Origin: Lachnospiraceae bacterium
GTDB lineage: Bacteria; Bacillota; Clostridia; Lachnospirales; Lachnospiraceae
Direction: 5' to 3'
DNA: 64,000 nucleotides
Assembly (NCBI GenBank): GCA_022796795.1
Contig: JAAWJI010000006.1
Location: 51,186-115,185, forward strand
Notes under the pieces: model-generated
What the model saw: the letters and a program-made list of their open reading frames with translations, nothing else
The model's database searches: none
Told to the model about the DNA's origin: nothing
Shown here: positions 14,250 through 33,524 of the stretch, piece by piece
Numbering within the stretch: position 1 is the first letter of the stretch
Layout of the letters: each line of letters begins with the position of its first letter
Program-made: the position numbers and the translations under genes

Positions 14250-14846
14250 TTATATCCATTTCATGCTGTGTAATAGGGCTTTCTGGCTTCCTAGATTTTT
14301 TCTAAATAAATTCTCAAACTCTTTATTAATTGTTTCCAAAGAATGTGTGTACTGAAAATACTTTTGCTTTAACACTACTGTACCGTCTTCATGGACATAA
14401 ATCAACTTTCCTTTTATCAAGCCCGAAAATATAGGACTCCCATAAGGGGCCAGCCCCACTAATTTGTACTCCCTACTATTTATTTTTGAAGTCTGTGTAG
14501 AATGTAAATGCAGAATACAACAATCCCAAAGAGTTTGGATATATTTTGGCATAGACTTTAGAAAACTCATAAATCCTTTGGGACTCATTAAGTGAGCCAT
14601 TCCCAGAATTCTTTCACACTTGATAATGGAATCCTCATAAAAAATAATGGAATCTGCCTGATCTAATATAATATTCACTTCATATAGACAATATTCGATA
14701 GCATGATGTGGAAAAGAATGATCCCCTTTAATTCTTGTGAATCGCTCCTCCTGAGCCTCTGCTACAATCTATCCACCCACCATAATTGCCGATGCAGAAT
14801 CATGATAATAAGCTGAGATTCCAAGAATTACTATTTGCTTCTTCAT
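14250..14846 (-). pseudogene. Carbamoyltransferase (NodU/CmcH family) fragment with internal stop
   Basis: From an ATG at 14846 the frame encodes KKQIVILGISAYYHDSASAI, the typical start of NodU-type carbamoyltransferases. It is broken by an in-frame TAG at 14769-14771 (codon 26). The same frame continues with IVAEAQEERFTRIKGDHSFP and reaches KLVGLAPYGSP, another family hallmark. It ends at 14250 after about 198 codons, whereas family members have about 550-600. Both the stop and the missing C-terminal two thirds argue for a dead gene. When intact it would have carbamoylated a capsule sugar. Confidence 0.85.
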
Positions 14847-28528: not shown

Positions 28529-29158
28529 TCAACCCTTTTCTTGTTTTCCTTCTCTCATTGCCCCAGTTCCGCCTTCCACTACACCTTCTGAACGCAGTAC
28601 GGATAAAATCGTTCCCCAAAAGCAACGTATATCAAATCCAAGGCTCATCCGCCTCACATATTCTCCATCCAAACGAGCTTTCACTGCTATCTCCAGTTCA
28701 TCCCGTCCATTGATCTGAGCCCATCCAGTCAATCCTGGCACGATATCATTTGCCCCATATTTATCCCGCTCTGCAATCAGGTCATATTGATTCCATAGCG
28801 CTGGTCTGGGGCCGATAATGCTCATCTCTCCCTTAACAATATTTATAATCTGCGGCAATTCATCCAGAGAGGTTTTCCGCAGAAATTTTCCTACCATTGT
28901 AATATACTGAGCCGGGTTTTCCAGCATATGGGTTGGCTTATCCTTAGGGGTGTCAATCCGCATAGTGCGGAATTTTAAAATATAAAAATGGCTTTTATGA
29001 ATTCCTATCCGTTTCTGCCGAAAAAAAACTGGCCCCCGGGAGTCCAGTTTTATTGCTATTATAATCACTAAAAATAATGGGGACAGGAAAATCAATCCCA
29101 GCACAGATAACGCCACATCCATTCCCCTTTTTATTCTCAAATATCCCTTTTGTTTCAT
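28529..29158 (-). CDS. Initiating sugar-phosphate transferase (PglC/EpsL/WcaJ-like)
   Basis: A bacterial sugar transferase of about 209 residues that transfers a sugar phosphate to undecaprenyl phosphate, the first committed step of polymer assembly. A single N-terminal hydrophobic re-entrant segment (about residues 12-35, LGLIFLSPLFLVII) is followed by family motifs FRTMR, KTSLDELPQIINIVKGEMS, GPRPAL and PGLTGWAQINGRDE. The Asp-Glu pair in LDELPQ is catalytic. The ATG at 29158 overlaps the loaP stop by 4 bases and follows GGGGAGG. Confidence 0.93.
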   Translation of the reverse strand: MKQKGYLRIKRGMDVALSVLGLIFLSPLFLVIIIAIKLDSRGPVFFRQKRIGIHKSHFYILKFRTMRIDTPKDKPTHMLENPAQYITMVGKFLRKTSLDELPQIINIVKGEMSIIGPRPALWNQYDLIAERDKYGANDIVPGLTGWAQINGRDELEIAVKARLDGEYVRRMSLGFDIRCFWGTILSVLRSEGVVEGGTGAMREGKQEKG

Positions 29159-29721
29159 TTCTCCTCCCCATAATAGCTTCCGCATGAAGCCGACGAGTAT
29201 TCCATAGAATCCCCATCCACCCGAATCCCCAACAAAATCTCCCTCTCTCTTCCAAACAGCTGTACCCGGATTACCACATACCGAAGCCGGATCCGCTTCT
29301 TCACCACACGATCCAGATACCCCCGCAGCGGCTCCCCGCAGGATATAATATTCCCCTGCTCGTCCACCTCCACGGTTGACAGCCGCACGGTATAATCCGG
29401 ATCTCCATGTAACAGACGCTTCAAAAACGCCTCTTCCTCCTGGGACACTGACTGGAATTCCTGCCCGTCCTTTCCCAGGATCCTGGTAAACTGAGGAACC
29501 TTTTTAAGCTGCATATAAAAGGCCTCCGGATCGCTGACACATACAAACACATAGCCTGGAAACAGGCGTTCCGTGTGGATGCGGCAGCCTCCTCGAATCC
29601 GCCAGACAGCCTCCCTTTTTAATAGGAAGCAATCCTCACAGATCTCTGGTTCTATTACCTTGCGGATGGTCTCTATGGTCTCCTCTTCCTTCCCTGTAAT
29701 GGTCTGTATGGCATACCACAT
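29155..29721 (-). CDS. loaP: LoaP-type NusG paralogue, transcription antiterminator (distal copy)
   Basis: A 188-residue NusG-family protein. The N-terminal NGN domain starts WYAIQTITGKEEETIETI and includes ERLFPGYVFV. A KOW-like segment lies near residues 140-170 (EPLRGYLDRVVKKRIRLRY). LoaP proteins load on RNA polymerase at an RNA hairpin and stop premature termination of long polysaccharide or antibiotic operons. This fits a 19-kb operon that starts with the gene. It overlaps the initiating transferase by 4 bases. A second related gene lies just upstream. Confidence 0.88.
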   Translation of the reverse strand: MWYAIQTITGKEEETIETIRKVIEPEICEDCFLLKREAVWRIRGGCRIHTERLFPGYVFVCVSDPEAFYMQLKKVPQFTRILGKDGQEFQSVSQEEEAFLKRLLHGDPDYTVRLSTVEVDEQGNIISCGEPLRGYLDRVVKKRIRLRYVVIRVQLFGREREILLGIRVDGDSMEYSSASCGSYYGEEK

Positions 29722-29761
29722 GGCTCTCTTCCTCTCTCTAAAAATGGGTATGCTCCGCCAC

Positions 29762-29840
29762 TTTGCAGCCTGTACTGCAAATCAGATCCACCCGCTATGC
29801 TGTATTTCCACATGCTTCGCAGTCTCACACTGTAAAGCAT
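29762..29840 (-). promoter_or_regulatory. Two hairpins in the loaP leader
   Basis: Between the two LoaP-like genes are two inverted repeats. The first is TTTGCAG...CTGCAAA (29762-29768 and 29775-29781). The second has ATGCTT/AAGCAT plus inner CAGT/ACTG (29812-29840) with a small internal loop. LoaP proteins are known to bind a stem-loop in the RNA leader of their targets, so these are candidate recognition hairpins. No long T run follows either one, so they are not standard terminators. Confidence 0.4.
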
Positions 29841-29865
29841 ATCTGATACTTTTTCCGTCAGCCTC

Positions 29866-30429
29866 TCAGCTTTTTGTTACAATTTCCAGCCCTACCTGCA
29901 GCTCCCTTTCCGAAATCATGGTTTCCCTGGCAGGTTCGCTTTCCGGAGATCGTTTACCTCTGGCAGATTTCCTTTCCGGAGCCATGCCAATTCGTGCAAC
30001 CCGTTTATGCCGGTCGATCTTCCGAATCAGGCTCTCCTTCCCGCACAGGGGGCCCTCTGTCACAAAGGTCTGTCCGTCCCGGATATATCCCCGGGACATT
30101 CCTGAGTGATGGGAAGCCCCGCATAAGCCTCGCAGAAACCCTTCCACTTCCGGATCTATTGCCTGTATACCAATCCTGTTTCCCAGCAGCTGCCGGATTT
30201 CAGGATCCCGATCCAGCTCCTGGCACAGCCGGTCTTTATCCTGGCTTTCCAAAAACAGCAGTCCGGGAAACAGCAGACGCTGCTCCAGATGCCAGTCTCC
30301 CTCATAGCGCCGCATACGGTCACAGGTAAATACAAAGGCATCCTGAAGCGCCTTACCATCCATCTGTGCTTTACAGATTCGGAGCAGCTCATGCTCCTTT
30401 TGATTTGGACAAGATATGATATACCAGAT
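29866..30429 (-). CDS. Second LoaP/NusG-like antiterminator with apparent non-canonical ATC start
   Basis: The frame encodes WYIISCPNQKEHELLRICKA, then LEQRLLFPGLLFLESQ and a KOW-like FVTEGPLCGKESLIRKIDRH. This is collinear with the LoaP protein downstream. Counting from an ATC at 30427-30429 gives 187 residues, against 188 for LoaP. GGGAGGG sits 7 bases before that ATC. No ATG, GTG or TTG occurs in frame between it and an upstream TAG inside the palindrome. The first ATG (30363) lies inside the NGN domain and has no ribosome-binding site. Either an ATC start or a start-codon loss is possible. A basic, Ser/Arg-rich tail follows the KOW. Confidence 0.7.
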   Translation of the reverse strand: MWYIISCPNQKEHELLRICKAQMDGKALQDAFVFTCDRMRRYEGDWHLEQRLLFPGLLFLESQDKDRLCQELDRDPEIRQLLGNRIGIQAIDPEVEGFLRGLCGASHHSGMSRGYIRDGQTFVTEGPLCGKESLIRKIDRHKRVARIGMAPERKSARGKRSPESEPARETMISERELQVGLEIVTKS

Positions 30430-30498
30430 GATCTGTCCCTCCCTTTTGCTTCCGAAATCACTGTTAAAGGTTCTTTTTGCAGGGTTTTGAGTGGGATA

Positions 30499-30527
30499 TT
30501 TTCGTAGAGTACACTACTCTACGAAAA
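30499..30527. repeat. Left 29-bp inverted site (recombination-site-like)
   Basis: The site has 13-base arms, TTTTCGTAGAGTA and its reverse complement, around a CAC centre. The same sequence occurs once more at 30741-30769 in the opposite orientation. Read as 11-bp arms around a 7-bp asymmetric centre (TACACTA), it has the layout of a tyrosine-recombinase core site. It lies 70 bases upstream of the presumed start of the first LoaP-like gene. Confidence 0.85.
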
Positions 30528-30689
30528 AGATGTTTTTAAATTCAAGACAATTAGAATAATTTGATTAGATATTTGTTTGTTGGCACACAATTTCACTGTT
30601 TAAAATTTCCATATTTCTACATATTCTGGGCTTTCCAATGGAAAAATGCACAGAGAACGTTAAAAAACGGGAAAAAATTACGATTCGTA

Positions 30690-30718
30690 TTGAAAATCTC
30701 CAGGAATCTGGTTATAAT
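30690..30718 (+). promoter_or_regulatory. Sigma-A promoter inside the inverted repeats
   Basis: TTGAAA (30690-30695), a 17-base spacer and TATAAT (30713-30718) form a near-perfect housekeeping promoter. Expected transcription would start near 30725 and run right into the second palindrome. Beyond it, no plus-strand gene exists before the terminator near 30946. I found no comparable promoter on the minus strand of the segment. Confidence 0.8.
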
Positions 30719-30740
30719 AGTACCTGTTGAGTTAAAAGGA

Positions 30741-30769
30741 TTTTCGTAGAGTAGTGTACTCTACGAAAA
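30741..30769. repeat. Right 29-bp inverted site (recombination-site-like)
   Basis: This is the exact reverse complement of the site at 30499-30527, with arms TTTTCGTAGAGTA and a GTG centre. Identity stops precisely at the 29-bp boundary on both sides, as expected for a recombinase target rather than a larger duplication. Confidence 0.85.
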
Positions 30770-30945
30770 TTGTGTTAAAATTTCATCTGCTGCAATCCTA
30801 CGAAAAATCAGCAGTTTAGCTTTCTATTTCTTATTATAATGCTCCTATTGCCACAAATATATGAATTTTAAACAGAAATGTACGATACCGGCCTCCGCCC
30901 CTTTCAATTTAAAGGAATGAAGGCGTTTTTTATTTGTAATGTAAA

Positions 30946-30989
30946 AACCTGGCACAGAGGTGATTATTATCTCACACCTGCACCAGGTT
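30946..30989 (-). terminator. Terminator after the lipoprotein gene
   Basis: AACCTGG (30946-30952) pairs with CCAGGTT (30983-30989), with an inner AGGTG/CACCT pairing. On the minus strand the stem is followed by TTTTT. It would end the XRE-lipoprotein transcript before the invertible segment. Confidence 0.6.
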
Positions 30990-31081
30990 CTAAAATAGTT
31001 CTATATGATAAACTTTATGCTGATCCGGCTATTGTCTGCCACTGTAATAATCTATTCTATCCAAATAGCAGTTATCGCCCC

Positions 31082-32149
31082 TCACTTTTCAAATCCCACC
31101 ACCTCCGCCTCCAGCAACCCATCTTCATTCTGATAGCAAAAGGTATGCGCCATCCCCCCATTTTCCGCCTTCTCCGAATCCCAGGTATAAATGCTCCTCT
31201 TTACCATTCCATCCTGTCGCTCTTCTTCCACCACCACATAGGCCGTATCCTCCTTGAGACTTATTTTTTCCACTCCTCGGGAAACCGTCGTTTCTCCAAG
31301 CAGCACATCCTCCTCACTCCACTCCTTGATCCGGGCCGCCCGAACTTCCTGGCCCACGGCAAAATGCACGGTAAACTCCCGGGCCTCTGTCTGGGTGTTC
31401 CCGACAACAGTCTGGGTGTTTTCCTCCTTTATGCTCTTGCTGTATACGACTCCCGGACTGGTCTGTCCGCTGTTCCAGTAGCCTGCCGTGCTGTCCAGCA
31501 GGACGTAGATGCTGCCGTCCTGCCGCTGGTACACAGGGTTCATGTAGAGAGTCACATCCGCCTTCTCCCCCATGTAAATGGTTCCCTCAGAGCTGCTGGT
31601 TTCTCCCTGGTCAGAGGTATGGGAGTTATAGTGAAGATCCTGGAACACGCCGTTTGCCGTGTAATAGGTATAACCGCCGTTTTCATCCTCCTGGTACAGG
31701 CCGGCCATCAAGGAGGCGCCCTCCAGCCCCTGGAAAACATATTCCCCGTCCTCTCCTGGAATCCCCTCCACCTGCCAGCCGCCGGATATCTCCCGGGAAT
31801 CCAGAAAGATCTCGGTCTCTCCGTTAAGCAGCTGTTTCATCTGTCCCTGGGTCAGCTCCACAGATTCCGCACTGTCCTCTGGACCAGCTTTCTGGGAAGC
31901 CCTCCAGGCATCCACCTGATTCTGAGTGGTTATCAGAACCCCGCAGAGTTTATCTGCTCCCCGGCTGCCCGTCTCTTCCCTGGCCAGCTGACAGCCTGAC
32001 AGCAGCAGGACTGCCCACAGGATACATGCTGCCTCACAGATTTTGCCCTTCTTCCATCCGGCTGTCTTCTTCGCTCTGCATTCCCTGCTTCCTCCACAGA
32101 GCTTTTTCTCTTTGTCTGCTCCTCTTGTTTCTGTTCTCCTAATATTCAT
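31082..32149 (-). CDS. Secreted lipoprotein of unknown function
   Basis: A protein of about 355 residues with a basic N-terminus, a hydrophobic stretch and the lipobox LLLSGC near residue 55, so it should be lipid-anchored outside the membrane. The rest is acidic and Gly/Tyr-rich (for example MAGLYQEDENGGYTYYTANG), and I recognise no domain. The open frame extends back to 32329, but that extension consists of a 52-bp direct repeat. The ATG at 32149 has AGAGGAAG upstream. It follows an XRE regulator and a DUF2975 protein and may be co-regulated with them. Confidence 0.7.
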   Translation of the reverse strand: MNIRRTETRGADKEKKLCGGSRECRAKKTAGWKKGKICEAACILWAVLLLSGCQLAREETGSRGADKLCGVLITTQNQVDAWRASQKAGPEDSAESVELTQGQMKQLLNGETEIFLDSREISGGWQVEGIPGEDGEYVFQGLEGASLMAGLYQEDENGGYTYYTANGVFQDLHYNSHTSDQGETSSSEGTIYMGEKADVTLYMNPVYQRQDGSIYVLLDSTAGYWNSGQTSPGVVYSKSIKEENTQTVVGNTQTEAREFTVHFAVGQEVRAARIKEWSEEDVLLGETTVSRGVEKISLKEDTAYVVVEEERQDGMVKRSIYTWDSEKAENGGMAHTFCYQNEDGLLEAEVVGFEK

Positions 32150-32160
32150 CCAAGCTTCCT

Positions 32161-32290
32161 CTCTGCCATCTCTGCTCTTTCCCAAATATCGTTTCGCTGA
32201 TCTTTTCCTTCCCTCTACTATCTTTGCACTTCTTCCAAAGATCGTTTCCCTGATCTTCTCCTTCCCTCTGCCATCCTTGCCCTTTTCCTG
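32161..32290. repeat. 52-53-bp imperfect direct repeats, about 2.5 copies
   Basis: Units start at 32161 (CTCTGCCATCTCTGC...), 32213 (CTCTACTATCTTTGC...) and 32266 (CTCTGCCATCCTTGC..., partial). They share a core GATCGTTTC.CTGATCTT about two thirds of the way through the unit. They lie between the XRE gene and the lipoprotein start and inflate the apparent lipoprotein frame. Confidence 0.75.
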
Positions 32291-32325
32291 CAGGGCCGGG
32301 ACCCTGCTTCCACCTTTCCACTCTG

Positions 32326-32577
32326 TCATGGATCGGGCAAAAGACTTTCCTCCCCGGTTCCTTCCTCCTCCAGCTTCCCGTCAAAGCGCAGAATATCTCC
32401 CACCTCGCACTGCAGATAGTAGCAGATTTTATTCAGGGTGCCGAAGCGCACGCCCTTTGCCTTTCCGGAGCGCAGCACGGAAAGATTAGCCTCCGTGATG
32501 CCCACCCATTTGCACAGTTCCTTGGAGGTCATATGGCGCTCCCGCAATACCTCATCTAAACAAATCCGTATGGCCAT
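32326..32577 (-). CDS. XRE/Cro-type transcriptional regulator
   Basis: An 83-residue helix-turn-helix protein. RICLDEVLRERHMTSKELCK and WVGITEANLSVLRSGKAKGVRF form the HTH, and LNKICYYLQCEVGDILRF is the usual last helix of this small class (YozG-like). The ATG at 32577 lies 5 bases after AGGAGGAAATG. Such regulators almost always follow a DUF2975 membrane protein, as here, and are thought to repress their own operon, probably through the large inverted repeat at 33525-33577. Confidence 0.9.
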   Translation of the reverse strand: MAIRICLDEVLRERHMTSKELCKWVGITEANLSVLRSGKAKGVRFGTLNKICYYLQCEVGDILRFDGKLEEEGTGEESLLPDP

Positions 32578-32586
32578 CATTTCCTC

Positions 32587-33504
32587 CTAGATAAACAGCT
32601 CATTTTCCTGCCTGAGCTCCCCGGCCCGTTCCGCGTACCGGGCCAGTATCAGGGCCCCAAAGGCAAGCAGCAGAGGAAACAGGGAAAGCTGTACCCCGTA
32701 GTTGACCTGCGCCAGTCTGGTCCGAAACAAAAACAGGCTTCCGTTCCAGGCAAGGGCACAGTACACGGACACCTGCACCAGCCGCACGGCCCTGCGGGAT
32801 AATCTGCGGGCAGCCTCTATGGTTCCTGCCCCAAAGGGATCTCCCTTTAATTCTCCCAGCAGAACACGACCCTGCCACAGGATACCCAGGAAACAGATCC
32901 GTGGCAGCAAAGACAGCAGGAACTTAAGTCCCACAAATAGCGTATCCAGCGCTCCCGCCGCCTCATTTCCCTCGAGTCCCCGGATTCCCTGGATCAGGCT
33001 CCAGACTCCCCCGCTCACAGCCGTCAGACCGTAAAACGCCAGGGAGCAGAGAAGGAGGCAGGATAATCCCCGGTACAGATCCACCCGTTTCTCCAGGGCT
33101 TCTTCCTGTCTAAGCATCAGGAGCAGGCGAAGGAGCACATAACCTGCCAGCAGAAGGTACCAAAGGCCGGAGGCCAGGCTTTTCAGCACCGGTAACAGCC
33201 CCTCCTCCTGGCCCAGGATTCTCATTCCCGTCTCTGCCGTCTCCCCGTAAAATAAGTGGGGGTTGATAAACAGGTACAAGAGATAAAAGCTGTAGGCGCT
33301 CAAAAGCAGCAAAAACAGCTCCGGATACGTCCAGCTCTCCCGTTTCTTTTTAATCCAGAAAATCCCTCCCCAAATCGGCAGCAGTCCCAAAAACACATAC
33401 AGCCCCCAGGCCGTCGCATTTCCCATTCCGCCCCTGAGAGACAGCAGGCGCAGGAAACGGCCCAGTGCCTCAAAGGGAATATACAGCAAGCTCCATCCCT
33501 CCAT
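32587..33504 (-). CDS. DUF2975-type membrane protein
   Basis: A hydrophobic protein of about 305 residues with seven or eight membrane segments. ELKGDPFGAGTIEAARRLSR in the second half is the typical DUF2975 loop. Its function is unknown; it is paired with a small XRE regulator in many Firmicutes. The frame opens at 33522, inside the palindromic operator, but the ATG at 33504 has AGGGAGAG upstream and is preferred. Confidence 0.8.
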   Translation of the reverse strand: MEGWSLLYIPFEALGRFLRLLSLRGGMGNATAWGLYVFLGLLPIWGGIFWIKKKRESWTYPELFLLLLSAYSFYLLYLFINPHLFYGETAETGMRILGQEEGLLPVLKSLASGLWYLLLAGYVLLRLLLMLRQEEALEKRVDLYRGLSCLLLCSLAFYGLTAVSGGVWSLIQGIRGLEGNEAAGALDTLFVGLKFLLSLLPRICFLGILWQGRVLLGELKGDPFGAGTIEAARRLSRRAVRLVQVSVYCALAWNGSLFLFRTRLAQVNYGVQLSLFPLLLAFGALILARYAERAGELRQENELFI

Positions 33505-33524
33505 GGTTTCTCTCCCTATCATTA

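What the first reader, a model, noticed from the sequence alone, without database searches (positions are those of the whole stretch)
30499..30769. Invertible promoter (phase switch) upstream of the polysaccharide operon, now OFF
Two 29-bp sites that are exact reverse complements flank 213 bases with a consensus promoter (TTGAAA-17-TATAAT) pointing away from the operon. Each site has 11-13-bp arms around a small asymmetric centre, like tyrosine-recombinase cores. I found no comparable minus-strand promoter for the first genes of the operon. Inversion would turn on about 19 kb of capsule genes through LoaP antiterminators. The arrangement mirrors Bacteroides capsule switches with UpxY, but lies in a Firmicute locus with LoaP.
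Basis: partly seen in the sequence, partly recalled or inferred. Interest (0 to 1): 0.95.

Follow-up and report, generated by a model that had tools for sequence, protein, structure and literature searches.

The report
Flip-switch promoter for bacterial capsule genes
Upstream of a polysaccharide gene cluster in what is probably a gut Lachnospiraceae bacterium, a promoter lies between two mirror-image DNA sites and points away from the cluster; it likely flips to turn capsule making on or off, and elements of the same build stand before three other polysaccharide clusters of this genome and in many relatives.

Summary
Observation confirmed: perfect inverted 30-bp sites (30498-30527, 30741-30770) flank 213 bp with TTGAAA-17-TATAAT pointing away from a polysaccharide operon that opens with two LoaP-like genes. 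This genome has four complete switches and one contig-end half; a site scan of other genomes gave 99 stretches. In 67 of 70 distinct site pairs the 7-nt centre is identical within the pair in inverted orientation, although centres differ between loci (permuted partners: mean 2, maximum 8). That fits site-specific inversion with a homology-tested crossover. In two species of the genus one locus is present with its inner segment reversed. In 28 relatives a tyrosine recombinase lies inside such inverted sites, usually with an outward promoter (22 of 28): a Hin-like self-contained switch. The window's version is promoter-only; its recombinase probably acts from elsewhere. Best candidates: two solo tyrosine recombinases on contig C32, whose clade is in all four genus genomes searched and none of the other 94. 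Flipping in this strain, transcription and the recombinase's identity are not shown. A new variant of a known kind: a Clostridia counterpart, probably convergent, of the Bacteroides multi-capsule switch, with tyrosine recombinases and a locus-private crossover "barcode".

The parts
30498..30527 (.). left inverted recombination-like site (core CGTAGAGTA-CAC-TACTCTACG, 30503-30523)
   Evidence: centre shared with the right site and with no other site of this genome
30741..30770 (.). right inverted recombination-like site (core CGTAGAGTA-GTG-TACTCTACG, 30745-30765)
30528..30740 (.). predicted invertible segment, 213 bp, no ORF of 80 aa or more inside
   Evidence: homologous inner segments in G000:C66 (84% over 208 bp), and partial matches in C67, C73, G001 and G002
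30690..30718 (+). outward promoter TTGAAA-17-TATAAT, at present pointing right, away from the operon (OFF)
29866..30432 (-). first LoaP/NusG-like gene (LoaP1); probable start is an ATC codon behind a ribosome-binding site (read by eye)
   Evidence: NF033641, 108 bits, cut-off 125
29155..29721 (-). second LoaP/NusG-like gene (LoaP2)
   Evidence: Pfam NusG 1.4e-11; NF033641 108.4 bits
11662..29185 (-). polysaccharide operon predicted to be switched: sugar transferase, epimerases, glycosyltransferases, UDP-sugar dehydrogenases, asparagine-synthase-like enzymes, EpsG, flippase
   Evidence: Pfam; on the - strand
30946..30990 (.). hairpin right of the element that might end the OFF-orientation transcript
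   Evidence: fold -21 kcal/mol for 30920-31010, z -2.0, 6 of 200 shuffles fold as well; role is inference

Best explanation
The 271-bp element at 30499-30769 is most likely a phase switch: a promoter between two inverted sites that a tyrosine recombinase is predicted to flip, so that the promoter would face the LoaP-like genes and the polysaccharide operon (ON) or, as in this assembly, points away from them (OFF). Shown by sequence: the paired sites, the single strong outward promoter, the operon opening with LoaP-like genes, and three more complete switches before such operons in the same genome. Inferred: the crossover takes place in the central 5-7 bp, whose identity within a pair and difference between loci would keep each switch from recombining with the others; the enzyme is one (or both) of the solo tyrosine recombinases on contig C32 acting in trans; in the ON orientation LoaP would be made first and would let RNA polymerase run through the long operon.
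For: (1): perfect inverted sites; 9 sites in the genome, 0 for the reversed control. (2): 67 of 70 distinct pairs have the same 7-nt centre in inverted orientation (permutation mean 2.0, maximum 8; 50 different centres); the 3 misses are neighbouring sites that are not partners (L103, L133, L155). Between loci, positions -2 to +2 are 25-50% identical and positions 3 to 11 on either side 82-100%. One more locus, split between two contigs (G001:C52 end and C8 start) and not in the 70, obeys the rule. (3): G002:C100 and G001:C35 are the same locus (both flanks match) with the inner segment reversed: 156 of 212 columns match when inverted, against 121 of 233 as is and at most 122 in 200 shuffles. 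(4): 23 LoaP-linked promoter-only switches scored, 4 ON and 19 OFF, so both states occur. (5): 27 of 39 promoter-only elements hold a promoter of at least 11 of 12 matches with 17-nt spacing (shuffles mean 0.84, maximum 5); all 27 point out of the nearer end. (6): 28 relatives carry a tyrosine recombinase inside such sites, 22 of 28 with an outward promoter, 1 of 28 with an inward one. (7): the solo recombinase clade (E below 1e-130) is in the four genus members and in none of the other 94 of 98 genomes; its sister in the tree (89/90) is from G015, the only other of the 98 with two sites close together on one contig at up to 2 mismatches. In G003 that gene lies about 1.4 kb from the switch. 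(8): 23 of 99 stretches have a site within 150 bp of a contig end (expected 2.0), 6 within 10 bp (expected 0.14), as mixed orientations would cause.
Against: No reads and no second strain of this species were available. All four complete loci of this genome are OFF. Of the 5 locus pairs with both flanks matched and the inner segment comparable, only 1 is inverted and 4 agree; of 16 with one flank matched, 6 are inverted and 10 agree, and some of these are different loci. Contig breaks can also come from near-identical elements within a genome; G001:C52/C8 breaks inside the conserved promoter rather than at a site. Single site hits in other genomes are no more frequent than the control (17 of 299 genomes against 14 with the reversed pattern, by my count); only genomes with several hits stand out. 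Two other recombinases of the same family in this genome sit inside sites of slightly different arm sequence (C75, C42) and could act on these sites instead. Twelve of the 39 promoter-only elements lack the strong promoter.
Confidence: 0.88

Rival explanations
1. The element is a relic: sites and promoter descend from active switches but no longer flip in this genome, so the operon is locked OFF or driven by a weak promoter elsewhere.
For: All four complete loci are OFF in the assembly; a 9-of-12 minus-strand promoter-like site right of the element could read through it (30994-30966).
Against: The two sites match at 30 of 30 bp and the promoter at 11 of 12, while the inner segment has diverged from that of C66 (84%); recombinases of the family have open frames in the genome and, in the rows aligned, all six expected catalytic residues.
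Confidence: 0.06
2. The switch is real but is worked by the C75 or C42 recombinase, which sit in their own inverted cassettes, rather than by the solo C32 recombinases.
For: C75 (374 aa) lies inside inverted sites CGTAGAAT...ATTCTGCG, close to the window's arms, and is up to 48% identical to recombinases inside window-type sites; C32a and C32b reach the same 46-48%, so identity does not decide.
Against: C75 and C42 have their own arm variants. At E up to 1e-50 a close C75 relative was reported in G003 only and a close C42 relative in G001 only, whereas the solo clade is in all four genus members. None of the 5 solo genes is flanked by an inverted repeat by my criterion, as expected of an enzyme that works in trans.
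Confidence: 0.2
3. The inverted sites are RNA hairpins (terminators or LoaP targets) or ends of a small mobile element, not recombination sites.
For: The left site folds into a 13-bp hairpin (-15.5 kcal/mol, z -5.9) and both score as terminator-like; the family is scattered over many genomes.
Against: A hairpin or a transposon end does not require that the loop of one copy equals the reverse complement of the loop of its partner 0.2-2 kb away while differing between loci; the orientation reversal in a related species; recombinases inside such sites.
Confidence: 0.04

Closest known systems
Bacteroides fragilis capsule switches (invertible promoters, Mpi, UpxY antiterminators; largely recalled)
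   Same: Several polysaccharide operons per genome, each with a small invertible promoter and a NusG-paralogue antiterminator gene first.
   Different: Mpi is a serine recombinase (recalled); the recombinases found inside such sites here are tyrosine recombinases. The antiterminators match LoaP better than UpxY. The host is probably Lachnospiraceae. Crossover centres are mostly private to each locus.
Salmonella Hin segment (recalled)
   Same: The relatives' self-contained version has the recombinase gene inside the invertible segment with a promoter pointing outward from the same segment (22 of 28).
   Different: Hin is a serine recombinase (recalled); the window's own element contains no recombinase.
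Gut 'invertons' of a defined community (PMC11892184, passages read)
   Same: Invertible elements are reported in Firmicutes_A (Clostridia-like) genomes; previously unpublished repeat-motif groups (125, 139) mostly from that phylum are mentioned.
   Different: The passages I saw describe no LoaP link, no recombinase-in-cassette family and no matching-centre rule; the supplement with the motifs was not available, so the site motif itself may be listed there.
Int protein of PDB 6en0/6emy/6emz (recalled to be Tn1549 Int)
   Same: Closest solved chains by sequence to both the solo and the C75 recombinase (E 1e-12 to 1e-11).
   Different: Integration/excision of a conjugative transposon (recalled) against inversion of a promoter; only 48-51 bits.

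Membership tests
Invertible-promoter phase switch (inverton) | inverted repeats flanking a promoter next to a gene or operon | tested here: met
Invertible-promoter phase switch (inverton) | same locus found in both orientations | tested here: met
   met for a locus in two other species of the genus, G002:C100 against G001:C35; not testable for the window's own locus
Invertible-promoter phase switch (inverton) | flipping within one population | not testable with these tools
   no reads; contig ends at sites are suggestive only
Invertible-promoter phase switch (inverton) | expression depends on orientation | not testable with these tools
   no RNA data
Tyrosine recombinase (candidate enzymes) | Pfam PF00589 and catalytic R, K, H-x-x-R, H, Y | tested here: met
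   R183, K236, H299, R302, H325, Y335 (numbering of the C32b open frame) invariant in 44 of 44 rows; which residues are catalytic is recalled
Bacteroides Mpi/UpxY system | serine invertase acting on the sites | tested here: inconclusive
   the genome has 4 PF00239 matches, none on a contig with a site; recombinases found inside such sites are tyrosine type
Bacteroides Mpi/UpxY system | UpxY-family antiterminator first in the operon | tested here: not met
   LoaP model 108 bits for both; UpxY model 22.7 bits (cut-off 100) for LoaP2 and no UpxY hit for LoaP1
LoaP antiterminator | score over NCBI's NF033641 cut-off (125) | tested here: inconclusive
   window proteins 108 and 108.4; G001:C8 140.5 and [Ruminococcus] faecis L132 144.4 pass
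LoaP antiterminator | UNCG-type RNA hairpin in the leader | tested here: not met
   none in the window stretch scanned; unconserved hits in 3 of 9 loci
Hin-like self-contained switch | recombinase gene inside the inverted pair | tested here: not met
   213 bp without such a gene in the window; met in 28 relatives and in own C75 and C42

The most novel reading that the evidence does not exclude
Gut Clostridia carry a whole family of self-contained flip cassettes (tyrosine recombinase plus outward promoter inside its own inverted sites) that have repeatedly shed the recombinase and spread as promoter-only switches before capsule operons. One solo recombinase works all switches of a genome in trans, and each locus is kept from recombining with the others by a private 5-7-bp crossover "barcode" that both of its sites share: an independent invention of the Bacteroides multi-capsule switch, down to the NusG-type antiterminator that opens each operon.
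Probability: 0.6. Interest if true: 0.85.

Novelty: new variant of a known kind. Interest (0 to 1): 0.76.

Why it matters
It predicts that capsules of gut Lachnospiraceae vary by DNA flipping, as in Bacteroides, with a different enzyme class and antiterminator. It gives a searchable site (CGTAGAGT-5-ACTCTACG in inverted pairs) that would let ON/OFF state be read from assemblies and metagenomes, names candidate enzymes, and offers a natural set of inversion sites with different centres for one recombinase family. The private-centre rule, if general, would explain how one enzyme can serve many switches without scrambling the chromosome.

Tried and rejected
Serine recombinases were considered: 4 matches in the genome, none on a contig with a site; the 5-7-bp matching centre fits a tyrosine enzyme better. 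Rfam: no family in 10000-34000. A UNCG LoaP hairpin was sought and not found as a conserved feature. The IMG/VR hit L169 shares a centre with own locus C66, but carries a recombinase gene beside the site and has no match to own loci. Contig C67 was first hoped to show an ON copy; no LoaP-like gene was found on it and its other half is missing, so it is left out of the ON/OFF count. Rows dropped: 3 of 73 pairs as duplicates, and pairs too near a locus end for 14-nt flanks were skipped (not counted); L155's 101-bp pair from the promoter count; L085 and L132 from the tree and residue count, because their frames as read give only a partial protein; L103 and L133 from the cassette counts, because the ORF between those sites is not a recombinase; L095 (no promoter) from the ON/OFF count. 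Pfam found nothing for window 31082-32329 and 32587-33522, right of the element. Literature: searches gave no papers; some searches gave papers on Bacteroidales, NusG factors, or other matters. Only passages of PMC11892184 and PMC12691694 were read; the others were seen as listings. Novelty is claimed only against those searches; most subscription papers and all supplements were out of reach.

Full report
What is there. The window carries two perfectly inverted 30-bp sites at 30498-30527 and 30741-30770 with 213 bp between them. Each site is a 13-bp palindrome around a 3-nt centre, CAC on the left and GTG on the right. Between them is one near-consensus promoter, TTGAAA-17-TATAAT at 30690-30718 on the + strand. 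To the left, on the - strand, lie two LoaP/NusG-like genes (29866-30432 and 29155-29721) and then a run of polysaccharide genes down to 11662: sugar transferase, epimerases, glycosyltransferases, UDP-sugar dehydrogenases, EpsG and a flippase. In this assembly the promoter points away from them, i.e. OFF.

It is one of a set in this genome. The core pattern CGTAGAGTA-NNN-TACTCTACG, allowing 3 mismatches, occurs at 9 places in the 3.72-Mb genome and the reversed control at none. They form four complete inverted pairs (window, C66, C73, C61; spacing 241-251 bp) and a single site 84 bp from the start of contig C67. Each complete pair lies next to a LoaP-like gene. Of the genes tested behind the other three, C66 has glycosyltransferase, epimerase, formyltransferase and deacetylase matches and C73 sugar transferase, epimerases and a glycosyltransferase; C61 has a sugar-aminotransferase-type gene, two glycosyltransferases, a UDP-sugar dehydrogenase and a polysaccharide pyruvyl transferase. 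All four switches point OFF. The centres differ: CAC, AGC, CCC, and TTGCCTA (7 nt) for C61; the C67 half-site reads GCG.

The centre rule. An exact scan of one genome for each of 84,980 species for TCGTAGAGT-5-ACTCTACGA gave 99 stretches, where about 4 would be expected by chance (my estimate from 18 fixed bases in 257 Gb). Most are Lachnospiraceae or Clostridia by record title; a few bins carry other labels (Oscillibacter, Erysipelotrichaceae, Paludibacteraceae, Thermoflexaceae), which may be binning errors. Together with the genus loci this gave 73 pairs, 70 distinct. In 67 of 70 the 7-nt centre of one site equals the reverse complement of the other's. The three exceptions are neighbouring sites that are not partners. 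When partners are permuted, the mean is 2.0 and the maximum 8. There are 50 different centres. Positions 3 to 11 on either side are 82-100% identical between loci, positions -2 to +2 only 25-50%. This is what a recombinase that demands homology in its crossover region would leave. The width, 5-7 bp, fits a tyrosine recombinase rather than the 2-bp overlap of serine invertases (recalled). A further locus, split between the end of G001:C52 and the start of G001:C8, has matching centres too (TAAGTAA / TTACTTA).

Direct sign of inversion. Among locus pairs with both flanks matching and a comparable inner segment, 1 of 5 is inverted; with one flank matching, 6 of 16 are, but some of those are different loci. 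G002:C100 and G001:C35 share both flanks (80.6% over 1550 bp on the left, 77% over 159 bp on the right), and the inner segment matches at 156 of 212 columns when reversed, against 121 of 233 as is; 200 shuffles gave at most 122. The promoter faces LoaP in G001 (ON) and away in G002 (OFF). Over 23 LoaP-linked promoter-only switches I score 4 ON (G001:C35, G003:C2, L075, L128) and 19 OFF (21 rows plus L056 and L060). Three of these (L101, L139, L142) rest on a weaker promoter match; L095 had none and is not scored. Contig ends pile up at the sites: 23 of 99 stretches within 150 bp (expected 2.0) and 6 within 10 bp (expected 0.14). Mixed orientations in the sequenced population would do this, but so can repeats between loci; the C52/C8 break lies inside the conserved promoter.

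The promoter. Of 39 promoter-only elements, 27 hold a promoter with at least 11 of 12 matches and 17-nt spacing; 50 rounds of swap-shuffled controls gave a mean of 0.84 and a maximum of 5. All 27 point out of the nearer end, with the -10 box 6-39 bp from the site core.

The enzyme. In 28 loci with sites 1.2-2.1 kb apart a tyrosine recombinase gene lies inside the pair (all 28 match own recombinase C75; Pfam was run on three of them; two further wide pairs hold an unrelated protein). In 22 of 28 an outward promoter lies between the recombinase's 5' end and the site; an inward one was seen in 1 of 28. This is the layout of Salmonella Hin (recalled), with another enzyme class. The window's genome has four clear recombinases of this family. 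C75 and C42 lie inside their own inverted sites with altered arms. C32a and C32b do not. The C32 type is found at E below 1e-130 in all four genus members and in none of the other 94 of 98 genomes. Its sister in the tree (89/90) is from G015, the only other of the 98 genomes with two sites close together on one contig at up to 2 mismatches. None of the five genus copies is flanked by an exact inverted repeat by my criterion, while 10 of the other 13 family members examined are (16-33 bp). In G003 the gene lies about 1.4 kb from the switch. The six expected catalytic residues are invariant in 44 of 44 rows. I therefore infer that the C32 enzymes work the switches in trans, at about two-thirds confidence. 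The four same-genus genomes are not independent, so this co-occurrence counts as about two events. A protein search with C32b found 3,476 relatives at E up to 1e-60 among 7,999 scored candidates (a capped list); the few named ones shown are called site-specific integrase or tyrosine-type recombinase, several from Lachnospiraceae.

How it would work. Recombination at the two centres would reverse the 213-bp segment and start transcription about 110 nt upstream of the first LoaP gene (my estimate from the coordinates). LoaP would then be made first. In Bacillus velezensis LoaP binds an RNA hairpin and promotes read-through of a terminator region (PMC12691694, passages read). I found no such UNCG hairpin conserved in these leaders, so how LoaP would find this operon is open. 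In the OFF state the transcript would run right into a hairpin at 30946-30990.

What it is compared with known systems. It works like the Bacteroides fragilis capsule switches but should not be filed as one: the antiterminator matches LoaP, not UpxY, and the recombinases found inside such sites are tyrosine type, not Mpi-like serine type. A survey of gut invertons reports a median of 3 per genome in Firmicutes_A and two previously unpublished repeat groups mostly from that phylum (PMC11892184, passages read). Its supplement was not available, so the motif could be listed there. My ten paper searches showed, in titles, abstract starts and the passages read, no description of LoaP-linked invertible promoters or of this recombinase-in-cassette family; the library lacks most subscription papers.

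Weak points. No reads, no second strain of the species, no expression data. Single hits of the site pattern in other genomes are at background level (17 of 299 genomes against 14 for the control), so prevalence should be judged on pairs only. Twelve of 39 promoter-only elements lack a strong promoter. The private-centre rule has an exception: several switches of one genome (L071, L158, L164) share a centre. The recombinase assignment is by association.

Noticed in passing
window 30432 (-), first LoaP gene: The first LoaP gene has no ATG, GTG or TTG at the expected place; an ATC codon follows the ribosome-binding site. ATC is also seen at G000:C61 and G002:C100 and ATA at G001:C66, while G001:C32 and C8 have ATG and G001:C35 TTG; C66 and C73 of G000 and G003 are unclear. 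Possibly weak, regulated translation.
   Followed up: partly
L067 6094-7562 (G000:C75) and L011 603-2106 (G000:C42): Two self-contained flip cassettes, a tyrosine recombinase inside inverted sites of slightly different arms, elsewhere in the same genome; a protein that looks secreted by eye lies a few kb beyond C75.
   Followed up: partly
L071, L158, L164 (one genome, CANQOK): Three switches of the same length (423 bp) share the same centre, against the private-centre rule; perhaps recent duplicates that could recombine with each other.
   Followed up: no
L155 6185, 7658, 7759: A third site 101 bp beyond a recombinase cassette, in the same orientation as its neighbour, so deletion of the 101 bp as well as inversion might occur there.
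   Followed up: no
window 14250-14678 (-): Short ORF matching only part of a carbamoyltransferase domain (PF02543 positions 200-262), perhaps a remnant within the polysaccharide operon.
   Followed up: no
window 29155-30432 and other genus loci: Two LoaP-like genes in tandem in 8 of 10 genus loci (G000:C61 shows one, G002:C100 is cut by its contig end); the second might play a partner or inhibitory role, as UpxZ does beside UpxY (recalled).
   Followed up: no
G042:C10, G042:C39, G038, G031, G085, G003:C14, G003:C11, G001:C62: Further recombinases of the family lie between inverted repeats with other, in part quite different, arms, suggesting that arms and enzyme evolve together.
   Followed up: partly
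L060 1-207 (G001:C8) and L212 1379-1433 (G001:C52): One switch is split between two contigs whose ends share ATTATTATAACC, within the promoter conserved among the elements; the two sites have matching centres.
   Followed up: yes
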